NCBI GenBank assembly: GCA_027315205.1
Contig: DAHUYM010000006.1
Location: forward strand, 1-64,000
DNA length: 64,000 nucleotides
Source: Leptospirillum sp.
GTDB taxonomy: Bacteria; Nitrospirota; Leptospirillia; Leptospirillales; Leptospirillaceae
Direction: 5' to 3'
The position numbers and the translations under genes were made by a program. The notes under the pieces were generated by a model. That model did no database searches and was not told the DNA's origin. It saw only the letters and a list, made by a program, of their open reading frames with translations. Position 1 is the first letter of the stretch, and each line of letters begins with the position of its first letter. Below are positions 788 to 4,492 of the stretch, piece after piece.

Positions 788-1138
788 CTAGTAGGCTTTG
801 CTGTATCCCGCTTCGTCGCCGTAGTTCCAAAGTTTCTGTGCAGCGGACCATTTCCACTTCTTTGTCAGTGCGGAAAGAAAACCGTCCACTTCCGCGTCGG
901 TCACTGTACGGGTGGCCATGAAACGGCAACGGTACCAGTTCACCAGCATCAGGTCGGGGCTGACGTATCCCGGCCAAACCTTTGTTCCGCGGTTGGAAAC
1001 AAATTCGATTTTGAACGCGCCGTACTCGTCGAAAGCCGGAATTCCGTCTTCGGTGATGATATAGACATCGACTCCTACTAGAGTGGCGGTTTTGACCTGC
1101 CTCTTTGCCCGGCCGGTAGTAGCTTGTGAAAGCGTCAT
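788..1138 (-). CDS. Stand-alone C-terminal domain of Thermus-type isocitrate dehydrogenase
   Basis: The 116 residues match the C-terminal extension (roughly the last 110-140 residues) of long isocitrate dehydrogenases such as that of Thermus thermophilus. Shared blocks, recalled from the family, are VGVDVYI, SNRGTKVWP, YRCRF and a final W-x2-x2-KL...G-x-x-K region. In the long enzymes this domain is fused to the catalytic core and helps the dimers assemble. Here it is a separate gene 25 bases after the stop of the core gene, with its own ATG, followed by a strong terminator. It therefore most likely encodes an accessory subunit of the same enzyme. It has no catalytic residues. A frameshift artefact is possible but unlikely, because both parts have proper ends and starts. 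Confidence 0.8.
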   Translation of the reverse strand: MTLSQATTGRAKRQVKTATLVGVDVYIITEDGIPAFDEYGAFKIEFVSNRGTKVWPGYVSPDLMLVNWYRCRFMATRTVTDAEVDGFLSALTKKWKWSAAQKLWNYGDEAGYSKAY

Positions 1139-1163: not shown

Positions 1164-2174
1164 TCAAACGGTCTCCATGGCCCGAACGATTGCTGCGGCG
1201 AACTCGTCAGTCGAAGCGGTTCCGCCGGCGTCGTAGGTCAGATGCTTGCCTTCTGCCAACACCTTGTCGAATCCCTTCTGGATACGGTCTGCCGCGGCTT
1301 TTTCGTTCAGCCAGCGAAGCATCATCACACCCGAGAGAAGGACAGCGGAAGGGTTCACTTTTTTCATGCCCGCATATTTCGGGGCGGATCCGTGAACGGC
1401 TTCGAAGATGGAACAGTTATCGCCGATGTTGGCGCCGGGAGCAAAGCCGAGACCGCCTACCAGTCCCGCGCAAAGGTCGGACAGGATATCACCGTAGAGA
1501 TTGGGGAGAACGAGACAGTCGAACTGGCCGGGATTCCGGACGAGTTGCATAGAACAGTTATCCACGATGATGTCGCCGGTTTCTATGTCCGGGTTTTTCT
1601 TAGCCACTTCGCGGAAGGCTTCAAGGAAAAGACCGTCGGTCATTTTCATGATATTGGCCTTGTGCACGCATTGGATCTTCTTCCGGTTGTTGGCACGGGC
1701 CCACTTGAAAGCGAATTCGGCAATGCGGACCGACCCTGGCCAGGTGATAACCTTCAGACACTGGGCCACTTCGTCGGAGACCATGTGCTCGATGGCGGCA
1801 TAGGAGTCTTCAGTGTTTTCCCGGAAGCTCAGGATGTCGATCTTGTCCCAAGGGCGCTTCAGGACCGGTATAAGCTTCACCGGACGGACATTGGCGTAGA
1901 GGTCGAACATCTTCCGAAGCGTCACGTTGGCGCTCTTGTGTCCAGTTCCCACCGGTGTCGTCGTCGGTCCCTTGATAGCGATCTTGTTCTTGGCGATGGA
2001 CTTGATGGTCTTCTCCGGCAGGAGAGTTCCATGTTCCTTCAGGCAATCGAGTCCGATTTCCTCGTACTCCCAGACAATGTCCACTCCGCTGTGGTCGATG
2101 ACGGACCTGACGGCTTCGCAGATTTCCGGTCCGGTTCCCTCTCCAGGGAGCATCGTGATAACGTGTTTTCCCAT
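1164..2174 (-). CDS. icd: Isocitrate dehydrogenase, catalytic core (probably NADP-dependent)
   Basis: This enzyme interconverts isocitrate and 2-oxoglutarate plus CO2 in the oxidative or reductive TCA cycle, in the cytoplasm. The protein has about 336 residues. Visible family residues are the S-x-N-x3-R substrate motif (81-87), Arg in SFREN (118), Tyr125, Lys172 in HKANIMK, and the metal aspartates in YGDILSD (228-233). The HGSAPKYAG loop (261-269) carries the Lys-Tyr pair typical of NADP-linked enzymes. Overall it resembles the Thermus enzyme more than isopropylmalate dehydrogenase. The core stops where Thermus IDH continues into its C-terminal domain, which is encoded by the next gene. The start chosen is ATG 2174, 11 bases after a GGAGG; ATG 2192 and ATG 2255 are alternatives. 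Confidence 0.85.
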   Translation of the reverse strand: MGKHVITMLPGEGTGPEICEAVRSVIDHSGVDIVWEYEEIGLDCLKEHGTLLPEKTIKSIAKNKIAIKGPTTTPVGTGHKSANVTLRKMFDLYANVRPVKLIPVLKRPWDKIDILSFRENTEDSYAAIEHMVSDEVAQCLKVITWPGSVRIAEFAFKWARANNRKKIQCVHKANIMKMTDGLFLEAFREVAKKNPDIETGDIIVDNCSMQLVRNPGQFDCLVLPNLYGDILSDLCAGLVGGLGFAPGANIGDNCSIFEAVHGSAPKYAGMKKVNPSAVLLSGVMMLRWLNEKAAADRIQKGFDKVLAEGKHLTYDAGGTASTDEFAAAIVRAMETV

Positions 2175-2296: not shown

Positions 2297-2787
2297 ATGA
2301 GCATTCCTCTAAGGTTAACAAAAAAAAATTCCTTTGGAAAGCCTTGAACCGCACCTGGAAAGGCACTCCGGCACAAAAGGCGGACCAAGAATATGTCTTT
2401 TTGCCAGTCTGGACACCTCCCCCCGTGCGAGTAAGAAGAATCCCCAGAATGATGTCTGCCGGGAAAGCCCACGAGAATCCCAACGGCGACGAGGGTGAAG
2501 ACCGAGCTCCGGAAAGCGGTATCCTTACTTTCCGCGGAGGATCCCAAAGGGCATACACACAGGCTCACGTGGGGGACAAGCTTCCGTGTCATAGCCGGAT
2601 CGATATTGCGACGATGCAAGAATACCCGGACACAAGACTCTGGCGATGACCGCAAGAGACCGTCGTCGGTCATCAGGACATCTGAAACAAGCCATCAATC
2701 GGATCGCTTCGGAGAAAAACAGAAACCGACATCCACCAGAGATTTTTCAACAAAACGGGAAAACGCGGAAACCCTTGATGGGATTGG
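2297..2787. other. Intergenic stretch between icd and tRNA-Gly
   Basis: About 490 bases without a supportable gene. On the minus strand, two overlapping frames together could read as a short hydrophobic stretch (around 2440-2520, with F-T-L-V-A-V-G-I-L in one frame and A-D-I-I-L-G-I-L-L in another). That would need a frameshift, and neither frame has a convincing start. It could be a decayed small membrane protein or chance. Confidence 0.3.
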
Positions 2788-2859
2788 AGCGGGATACGGG
2801 ATTCGAACCCGCGACTTTCAGCTTGGGAAGCTGACACTCTACCGCTGAGTTAATCCCGC
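2788..2859 (-). tRNA. tRNA-Gly (anticodon CCC)
   Basis: The minus strand folds as a cloverleaf. The acceptor stem is GCGGGAT (2859-2853) with ATCCCGC (2795-2789). The D arm contains AGCGGTAGAGT. The anticodon stem TCAGC/GCTGA has the loop TTCCCAA, giving anticodon CCC, and the T arm contains GGTTCGAATCC. The discriminator base is U, as in bacterial glycine tRNAs. CCA is not encoded. The anticodon reads GGG codons. Confidence 0.95.
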
Positions 2860-2876
2860 CCGGTCAGAGGAGAATG

Positions 2877-2905
2877 AGAATATCACAGCGCCTTTTACCG
2901 GACAA
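2877..2905 (-). promoter_or_regulatory. Putative promoter of tRNA-Gly
   Basis: On the minus strand a TTGTCC -35 box (2900-2905) and a TATTCT -10 box (2877-2882) are spaced by exactly 17 bases. The -10 is preceded by TGA, an extended -10 element. The start would fall about 10 bases before the mature tRNA 5' end. Confidence 0.6.
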
Positions 2906-2983
2906 GAGTCTTTTCCCGATCTTGGGAAGAAGAAACATTCGAAGAGAACGCACCCGATTTTGTGGACCTTGTAACGTCAATCA

Positions 2984-3376
2984 CTAGAGCATTTCCTTCA
3001 AACCATTCCATGACCAGTGTATCACCACCATCATACGGTCAGTGCCGAAAGCCTCCAAGAAAACAACAACCCCGGCAATCGGAACTGTTTCCAAATGATC
3101 CTGAGCAGCCAGAACCCGGTCGAATGGATCCCGATGGCCTAGATCCCATAAAAGATGCGCCTCTCCCGTATGATTTGCCCCGCCTCCGACGAACCCGATC
3201 ACCTCCATCTGATCACCTTCTTTGAGACGCTGCCCTTCCCAACGCTCTTTAGACACGATTTCGAGATTCAACTCCACGACTACGGGCTTTTCAAGGAGGC
3301 CCATATGGTCCAATACATCCCGGATCGAACTGCCTTCGGCAAACGACCTGGACTCTCCGTTAATATTTATATTCAT
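2984..3376 (-). CDS. ThiS-like sulfur carrier fused in frame to a PIN-domain C-terminal remnant
   Basis: Residues 1-66 look like a whole ThiS protein: a short beta-grasp fold beginning MNININGE and reaching the family's normal end at VIGFVGGG. A working ThiS must end in Gly-Gly, whose carboxylate is adenylated and thiocarboxylated to deliver sulfur for the thiazole of thiamine. Here the frame continues for 64 more residues. That tail contains HRDPFDRVLAAQ and a later EAFGTD, which resemble the last third of PIN/VapC toxin nucleases (DPFDR-x-L-x-AQ). The first part of a PIN domain, with its first acidic residues, is absent. No thiG or other thiamine gene is adjacent. The start ATG 3376 follows GGGAGG. 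The carrier may be dead, or may need cleavage after the glycines. Confidence 0.7.
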   Translation of the reverse strand: MNININGESRSFAEGSSIRDVLDHMGLLEKPVVVELNLEIVSKERWEGQRLKEGDQMEVIGFVGGGANHTGEAHLLWDLGHRDPFDRVLAAQDHLETVPIAGVVVFLEAFGTDRMMVVIHWSWNGLKEML

Positions 3377-3508: not shown

Positions 3509-4492
3509 ATGACGGGTCTGTTTGAACAGATGATAGTCAATCCTATTGTGCGTTCATTCTATGTGGCCCACCTGGTCCTGATCACCGGGCTGGCCTATGT
3601 CGCGGCCGACATTGCGGACGAATCCATCAAAAATCGGCTCGCAGGCACGCCAAAATCTCCCCGGACCGGCATCAGCATCATCCATGGATCAGCGGGACTT
3701 CCCACCGAAGAAGACCTTCGCGCGATCGCCTCCCGGAATCCCTTCAGCCCCGAAGACCGGGGAACGGGCTTCCTGGAAGCATCCCTGAATCTGGACGACT
3801 CCTCTTCCCCATCCGATGAAGCGGGAGCCGTCGTTCCCGTTGGCGACTGGACCCGCCAGAAGCACCTCGCCGTCCTGAAGCCCGAAACAATCAAACTTCG
3901 TCTCGTGGGGACCCTTCTCGCGGCGGGTACTGTCTCGGGGGCCGTGATCCAGAGCATCGGCAAGGAAGACCAGAAATTCTACCATATCAACCAGGATATC
4001 GTGCCCGGTCGGATCACTCTCATGTTCGTGCGCAAAAATTCGGTGATCCTGCGCGTGGGAAACGACTTCGGGATTCTGAAAGCCCGTTACGACAAAGGAG
4101 ATGACTCCGGACAGCTCCTGAACCAGCCCAATGCCGGAGGATCCACCCCGCACGGGGTACGGAAGCTCGACGACCATCATTGGCTGATCGAATCCCGGGC
4201 GATCCAGTTTGCAATGAAAAATTTGAACAGCTTGATGATGCAGGCGCGGGCCATCCCGAACTTCAACAGCGGTCACGTGGACGGCTTCAAGCTCGTGGCG
4301 ATCCAGCCCGGGAGCCTCTACCAGGAGGTAGGGCTTGCCCCGGGCGACATCATCCGCTCGATCAACGGCATGTCCATGAGCGACCCGCAGAACTTCGTCA
4401 AGGCCATATCCACACTGGGAGCCTCCGCCCAGGTCCAGGTCGATCTGATCCGGAACGGGACCCCACAAACCTTCGACTACCAGATAAGATGA
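3509..4492 (+). CDS. gspC: Type II secretion inner-membrane protein GspC
   Basis: GspC links the inner-membrane platform to the outer-membrane secretin and takes part in substrate recruitment. The 327-residue protein has one membrane segment near residues 16-35, then a periplasmic region with a homology-region-like part around 125-180. It ends in a PDZ domain from about residue 245 (the AIQPGSLYQEVGLAPGDII segment is the typical carboxylate-loop region). It is the first gene of the cluster and overlaps gspD by ATGA. ATG 3505 lies in another frame and stops after six codons, so 3509 is the start. The identification rests on the PDZ domain, topology and position. Confidence 0.85.
   Translation: MTGLFEQMIVNPIVRSFYVAHLVLITGLAYVAADIADESIKNRLAGTPKSPRTGISIIHGSAGLPTEEDLRAIASRNPFSPEDRGTGFLEASLNLDDSSSPSDEAGAVVPVGDWTRQKHLAVLKPETIKLRLVGTLLAAGTVSGAVIQSIGKEDQKFYHINQDIVPGRITLMFVRKNSVILRVGNDFGILKARYDKGDDSGQLLNQPNAGGSTPHGVRKLDDHHWLIESRAIQFAMKNLNSLMMQARAIPNFNSGHVDGFKLVAIQPGSLYQEVGLAPGDIIRSINGMSMSDPQNFVKAISTLGASAQVQVDLIRNGTPQTFDYQIR

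What the first reader, a model, noticed from the sequence alone, without database searches (positions are those of the whole stretch)
2984..3376. ThiS-like carrier whose Gly-Gly end is buried by an in-frame PIN-like tail
ThiS works only with a free C-terminal Gly-Gly. Here GGG falls at the normal end, but 64 more residues follow, and these resemble the C-terminal third of a PIN/VapC toxin (DPFDR...AQ). Either proteolysis frees the carrier, or it is inactivated, or the carrier has been domesticated with a nuclease fragment.
Basis: partly seen in the sequence, partly recalled or inferred. Interest (0 to 1): 0.7.

Follow-up and report, generated by a model that had tools for sequence, protein, structure and literature searches.

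The report
Thiamine sulfur carrier with toxin-scrap tail
This gene makes the small protein that carries sulfur for vitamin B1 synthesis, and its working end is followed by 64 extra residues that look like the scrap end of a toxin gene; related genomes show that extra residues after the working end are common, so the cell probably trims them off.

Summary
The ORF is real: minus strand, 3376 to 2984, 130 aa. Residues 1-66 are ThiS (TIGR01683, 69.3 bits, cut-off 37.45). The encoded Gly-Gly-Gly is followed by 64 in-frame residues. The tail does resemble a VapC/PIN C-terminus (HRDPFDRVLAAQ...), but only the DPFDR subfamily, over about 40 residues. Two-thirds of the PIN fold is missing, so it is a scrap that cannot be a nuclease.

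Burial of the glycines is not special. The same thiS, just upstream of tRNA-Gly(CCC), was read in 18 relatives, and in 14 of them it also runs 7-30 residues past GGG. In 95 further genomes of the phylum, 64 encode residues after the glycines (63 of 92 beside thiG); one is a ThiS-ThiG fusion. The first extra residue is mostly Ala, Ser, Thr or Cys. Tails drift faster than the body.

Best reading: ThiS here is a proprotein trimmed after the glycines, perhaps by the JAMM peptidase present in all 21 genomes of the family. About 220 bp carrying a vapC 3' scrap landed between thiS and its tRNA and was tolerated. Cleavage and the protease are inferred, not shown. The tail is extreme in length, not in kind.

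The parts
3179..3376 (-). ThiS domain, residues 1-66, ending in Gly-Gly-Gly (codons at 3179-3187)
   Evidence: Pfam PF02597 and TIGR01683; alignment with 18 syntenic orthologues, GFVGGG invariant
2987..3178 (-). 64-residue tail after GGG, in frame
3026..3157 (-). VapC/PIN-like stretch, residues 74-117 (HRDPFDRVLAAQ at residues 81-92)
   Evidence: not recognised by Pfam or a broad PIN model
2984..2986 (-). TAG stop codon, followed at once by a TGA
2785..2859 (-). tRNA-Gly (CCC), conserved downstream neighbour of thiS in the 18 relatives read
2860..3178 (-). GGG-to-tRNA interval: tRNA starts 320 bases after GGG here, against 67-106 in 17 of 18 relatives (410 in one); about 220 extra bases
   Evidence: no DNA copy elsewhere in the genome or the family
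3509..4492 (+). gspC-like gene, divergent neighbour of thiS; the order gspF-E-D-C / thiS / tRNA-Gly is kept in relatives
   Evidence: ORF maps; the gsp names are my reading of the sequences, not tested with a profile

Best explanation
The gene is the thiamine (thiazole) sulfur carrier ThiS, made as a proprotein. A stretch of about 220 bases holding the 3' scrap of a vapC toxin gene lies between thiS and tRNA-Gly, so translation runs 64 residues past Gly-Gly-Gly. The carrier still works because a peptidase, most likely the JAMM enzyme encoded with the other sulfur carriers of this genome, cuts after the glycines and frees the carboxylate that ThiF must adenylate. In this phylum the residues after the glycines are thus under little constraint, and tails of any length can build up. 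Shown: the ORF, the ThiS identity, the synteny, the tail similarity to VapC C-termini, the widespread tails, their faster drift, and the presence of JAMM. Inferred: expression, cleavage, its site, and which protease does it.
For: TIGR01683 match well over its cut-off. Own genome: the only other ThiS-type carrier, at C39:95866-96063, sits with metK, sahH, cysM-like, moeB and JAMM genes and groups with a Campylobacteraceae carrier that ends GGGA (bootstrap 88/86), not with P0001; so P0001 is the likely partner of the single ThiG at C22:15053-15790, which has no thiS beside it. Tails after GGG in 14 of 18 syntenic orthologues and 64 of 95 further genomes, 63 of 92 beside thiG. First residue after the glycines A, S, T or C in 48 of those 64, and S, C or A in 13 of 14 in the family. 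Tails drift faster than bodies: G018/G020 body 98% identical, tail 7 of 10; G010/G011 88% and 3 of 7. P0001 has no lengthened branch in the tree of bodies, so no sign of decay. A Prok-JAB gene in 21 of 21 genomes of the family; the own copy matches PF14464 at 90 bits and reads HSH-x7-S-x2-D. Precedents: MoaX of M. tuberculosis is inactive until cut between Gly82 and Ser83 (PMC4326299); a JAMM enzyme of Deinococcus cuts a MoaD-MoaE fusion (PMC8832034); Iyer et al. proposed that JAB enzymes free ThiS or MoaD from fusions (PMC1779556).
Against: No cleavage has been measured. The link between JAMM and tails is weak: 28 tailed and 7 untailed with JAMM, 1 and 3 without (Fisher p 0.045), the untailed JAMM-free genomes all come from one taxonomic family, and some tailed carriers counted are not beside thiG. 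One tailed genome (G037) has only a weak JAB match. No expression data. AlphaFold gave a useless model (mean pLDDT 43.5).
Confidence: 0.6

Rival explanations
1. This copy has been inactivated by the insertion and thiamine is made with the second ThiS-type carrier (C39:95866-96063, ending GGGG), or taken up.
For: The second carrier also passes TIGR01683 (62.6 bits) and has only an extra Gly at its end. The tail is present in one genome only, so the event may be recent and decay not yet visible.
Against: The body is intact with all invariant residues and shows no lengthened branch. Orthologues with their own tails keep well-conserved bodies, so a tail alone does not mark a dead gene. The second carrier groups with HcyS-type carriers beside sulfur amino acid genes.
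Confidence: 0.2
2. The tail has been kept for a function, for example binding RNA, ThiF or ThiG, so the fusion is a domesticated two-part protein.
For: The frame is open for 64 codons. Fusions of ubiquitin-like domains with PIN-related Mut7-C RNases exist (PMC1779556).
Against: The tail holds only the last third of a PIN fold, without the N-terminal catalytic acids. No relative shares it, and tails in relatives differ in length, frame and sequence, two of them running into the tRNA gene. No Mut7-C or Ub-Mut7C match.
Confidence: 0.08
3. Sequencing or assembly error removed a stop after GGG, or joined unrelated pieces.
For: Draft genome of 42 contigs; only one genome of this genus is held.
Against: The locus lies in the middle of conserved synteny on a 156-kb contig, with thiS upstream and tRNA-Gly downstream as in relatives, in a genome rated 99.9% complete. 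The insertion is about 220 bases, not one base. Tails without a stop after GGG are the rule in relatives.
Confidence: 0.04
4. The tail is not VapC-derived; its resemblance is a short chance motif in ordinary intergenic DNA.
For: No Pfam hit; a broad PIN model puts the tail no higher than its shuffles; the strongest match covers about 22 residues.
Against: Seven of 11 non-self hits in the family coincide with Pfam PIN domains; plasmid hits are VapC C-termini, aligned to within a few residues of the VapC stop, against none for a scrambled control.
Confidence: 0.08

Closest known systems
ThiS, sulfur carrier of thiazole synthesis (TIGR01683, PF02597)
   Same: Beta-grasp domain, conserved GFVGGG end, ThiF-type and ThiG enzymes elsewhere in the genome
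   Different: 64 residues encoded after the glycines; gene apart from thiG, between a secretion operon and tRNA-Gly
MoaX of M. tuberculosis and the MoaD-MoaE fusion of Deinococcus (cut after Gly-Gly; the latter by DRJAMM)
   Same: Sulfur carrier whose Gly-Gly is buried by an in-frame extension; Ser or another small residue often follows the glycines in the tailed ThiS set
   Different: There the extension is a partner enzyme used in the pathway; here it is a scrap. Cleavage not shown here
JAMM-matured pro-carriers QbsE and HcyS-Ala (from general knowledge; papers not in the library)
   Same: A few residues after Gly-Gly removed by a JAMM enzyme; carrier L034 of a Campylobacteraceae genome ends GGGA
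   Different: Extensions there are one or two residues, in pathways other than thiamine
Ub-like domain fused to Mut7-C PIN-related RNase (Iyer et al. 2006, PMC1779556)
   Same: Beta-grasp domain followed by PIN-related sequence
   Different: Complete, conserved nuclease domain with zinc ribbon; here only a third of a VapC-type PIN, in one genome
VapC toxins of the DPFDR subfamily (e.g. Granulicella WP_013573158.1)
   Same: C-terminal stretch HRDPFDR-x-L-x-AQ and the following strand
   Different: N-terminal two-thirds with the catalytic acids absent; no vapB next to it

Membership tests
ThiS | Match to the curated ThiS equivalog model over its cut-off | tested here: met
   TIGR01683, 69.3 bits against 37.45
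ThiS | C-terminal Gly-Gly | tested here: not met
   As encoded, 64 residues follow GGG. Also not met by 14 of 18 orthologues and 63 of 92 thiG-linked thiS genes of the phylum, so the encoded form is a poor criterion; the mature end could not be tested
ThiS | Linkage to thiamine genes (thiG) | tested here: inconclusive
   Not linked in this family, but P0001's nearest carriers elsewhere in the phylum are thiG neighbours
PIN/VapC toxin | Complete PIN fold with the N-terminal catalytic acids | tested here: not met
   Only a C-terminal third is present; no Pfam PIN match
PIN/VapC toxin | Sequence similarity to VapC C-termini | tested here: met
   broad PIN model negative
PIN/VapC toxin | Adjacent antitoxin gene | tested here: not met
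   ThiS codons directly precede the fragment; no vapB-like ORF between thiS and tRNA
Ub-Mut7C fusion | Ub-Mut7C and Mut7-C domains | tested here: not met
   Only PF02597 found in the 130 aa
JAMM-matured pro-carrier | Residues encoded after Gly-Gly | tested here: met
JAMM-matured pro-carrier | JAMM peptidase encoded in the genome | tested here: met
   PF14464 at G000:C39:91038-91370, and in 21 of 21 genomes of the family
JAMM-matured pro-carrier | Cleavage after Gly-Gly by that peptidase | not testable with these tools
   Needs protein work

The most novel reading that the evidence does not exclude
Across a whole bacterial phylum the thiamine carrier ThiS is a proprotein that must be cut after its glycines, by a JAMM peptidase shared with other sulfur carriers. 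Maturation has freed the 3' end of thiS from constraint, so it drifts, runs into the next gene, fuses to ThiG, and here has swallowed a toxin-gene scrap.
Probability: 0.45. Interest if true: 0.65.

Novelty: new variant of a known kind. Interest (0 to 1): 0.45.

Why it matters
ThiS is the textbook case of a sulfur carrier born with a free Gly-Gly end, in contrast to ubiquitin and SUMO, which are made as precursors. If two-thirds of the thiS genes of a phylum encode residues after the glycines, precursor processing is a routine step of thiamine synthesis there. That would give the many uncharacterised bacterial JAMM enzymes a plain housekeeping substrate and bring bacterial carriers closer to eukaryotic ubiquitin-like proteins. 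The window's gene is a natural experiment: a long, unrelated tail that the maturation step would have to tolerate.

Tried and rejected
Pfam, NCBIfam, PADLOC and PDB sequence searches of the tail alone: nothing. A broad PIN HMM without motif choice: tail ranks among its shuffles; so the claim is limited to the DPFDR subfamily, and the HMM, whose members were chosen by that motif, is supporting evidence only. DNA search for a parent copy of the insert in own genome, family and plasmids: none. None of the PIN loci of the own genome that were read has the DPFDR motif. The search for related loci in genome contigs gave two carriers, viral contigs none. A tRNA-integration origin: integrase genes do lie beyond tRNA-Gly in three relatives, but the insert here is on the 5' side of the tRNA, so this is not supported. 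Repeats, terminators and Rfam around the gene: only the tRNA. Testing the JAMM-tail link in another phylum failed because the genome search takes only its own genome handles as centre.

Full report
What is there. The ORF lies on the minus strand, 3376 to 2984, 130 residues. Residues 1-66 match ThiS: PF02597 at E 1.9e-13 and TIGR01683 at 69.3 bits with a cut-off of 37.45. The domain ends ...EVIGFVGGG, as in all 18 orthologues aligned. Sixty-four residues follow before TAG. The other two minus-strand frames carry several stops over the same stretch.

Is the tail PIN-like? Curated libraries see nothing in the tail. Three less direct tests are positive. First, the tail was searched against 21 genomes of its taxonomic family: 7 of 11 non-self rows fall on stretches that Pfam's PIN model finds independently. 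Second, against 72,556 plasmids the tail hits 101 records. Of the 14 annotated rows among the 20 listed, 12 are VapC toxins, matched at the extreme C-terminus and next to an antitoxin gene in the four that I opened. A scrambled tail hits 4 unrelated records. Individual E-values are poor, 0.02 at best. Third, an HMM from six VapC proteins of the DPFDR subfamily gives 21.0 bits against at most 8.9 for 2000 shuffles; those proteins were chosen by motif, so this counts as support only. A PIN model from 18 proteins without motif choice does not recognise the tail. I conclude that residues 74-117 derive from the C-terminal third of a DPFDR-type vapC. The two N-terminal thirds, with the catalytic acids, are absent.

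Where it sits. In 18 relatives of the family the order is the same: gspF-E-D-C pointing away, thiS, then tRNA-Gly(CCC) (the gsp names are my reading). From the end of GGG to the tRNA there are 67-106 bases in 17 of them, 410 in G006 and 320 here. So about 220 extra bases lie here. They have no DNA copy in the genome, the family or plasmids, and none of the own-genome PIN loci read has the DPFDR motif. The source was probably a mobile vapC since lost; that is inference.

The glycines are commonly buried. In 14 of the 18 orthologues the frame also runs past GGG, by 7 to 30 residues, and in two it runs into the tRNA gene. Only four, G006, G008, G015 and G016, have a stop directly after GGG. The residue after the glycines is Ser, Cys or Ala in 13 of 14, with serine written both TCN and AGC. 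Bodies are well kept while tails drift: G018 and G020 share 98% of the body but 7 of 10 tail residues, G010 and G011 88% and 3 of 7. I then read the best carrier in 95 further genomes of the phylum. Ninety-two lie beside thiG, so they are the thiamine carrier, and 63 of those encode residues after the glycines, 1 to 46 of them, plus one ThiS-ThiG single chain counted among the tailed. The first extra residue is Ala, Ser, Thr or Cys in 48 of the 64 tailed cases. Some of these tails overlap the start of thiG, so translational coupling may favour them. The window's 64 residues are the longest apart from the ThiS-ThiG fusion.

Which carrier is it? The genome holds three carriers. The second, at C39:95866-96063, ends GGGG and lies with metK, sahH, cysM-like and moeB genes; the third, ending AGGSR, lies with moeB and a JAMM gene. 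The second groups with a Campylobacteraceae carrier that ends GGGA (88/86), while P0001 does not. ThiG is single, at C22:15053, with no thiS beside it. P0001 is therefore the likely thiamine carrier, though the second carrier could in principle serve. P0001 shows no lengthened branch.

How it probably works. From established biochemistry, ThiF adenylates the free carboxylate of the last glycine, so a tail must be removed first. A JAMM peptidase gene is present in all 21 genomes of the family; the own copy matches PF14464 at 90 bits and has the HSH-x7-S-x2-D motif. JAMM trimming of carriers is known: a JAMM enzyme cuts the MoaD-MoaE fusion of Deinococcus (PMC8832034). MoaX is inactive until cut between Gly82 and Ser83, by a protease then unknown (PMC4326299). 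Iyer et al. proposed this role for JAB enzymes with fused ThiS or MoaD (PMC1779556). Among 39 genomes scored for both, those with JAMM are tailed in 28 of 35 and those without in 1 of 4 (Fisher p 0.045). The JAMM-free untailed genomes are one taxonomic family and some carriers counted are not beside thiG, so this is suggestive only.

Novelty. Buried-glycine carriers matured by proteolysis are known. A phylum-wide habit for ThiS, with a toxin scrap as the extreme case, I did not find described in the open library searched, which lacks most subscription papers. I therefore rate it a new variant of a known kind.

Noticed in passing
window 788-1138 (-) and 1164-2174 (-): Isocitrate dehydrogenase is encoded as two genes: a 336-aa catalytic chain (PF00180) and a separate 116-aa ORF in another frame holding the bacterial IDH C-terminal domain (PF18324). 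G002 (L071) shows the same split, so it is probably natural rather than a frameshift error.
   Followed up: partly
L197 (G093): ThiS and ThiG are one continuous ORF, ThiS-GGG-ThiG, in a complete-looking genome of the same phylum.
   Followed up: no
L069 (G007) and L073 (G017): The thiS frame runs into the tRNA-Gly gene by 9 and 20 bases beyond its start, so the two genes overlap on one strand.
   Followed up: no
L068, L070, L075: Phage-type integrase genes lie just beyond the tRNA-Gly in three relatives, so this tRNA is probably an integration site in the family.
   Followed up: partly
L004 (G000:C39:88000-100500): One cluster holds two further ubiquitin-like carriers (ends GGGG and AGGSR), two MoeB/ThiF enzymes and a JAMM peptidase among metK, sahH, cysM-like and threonine synthase-like genes.
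   Followed up: partly
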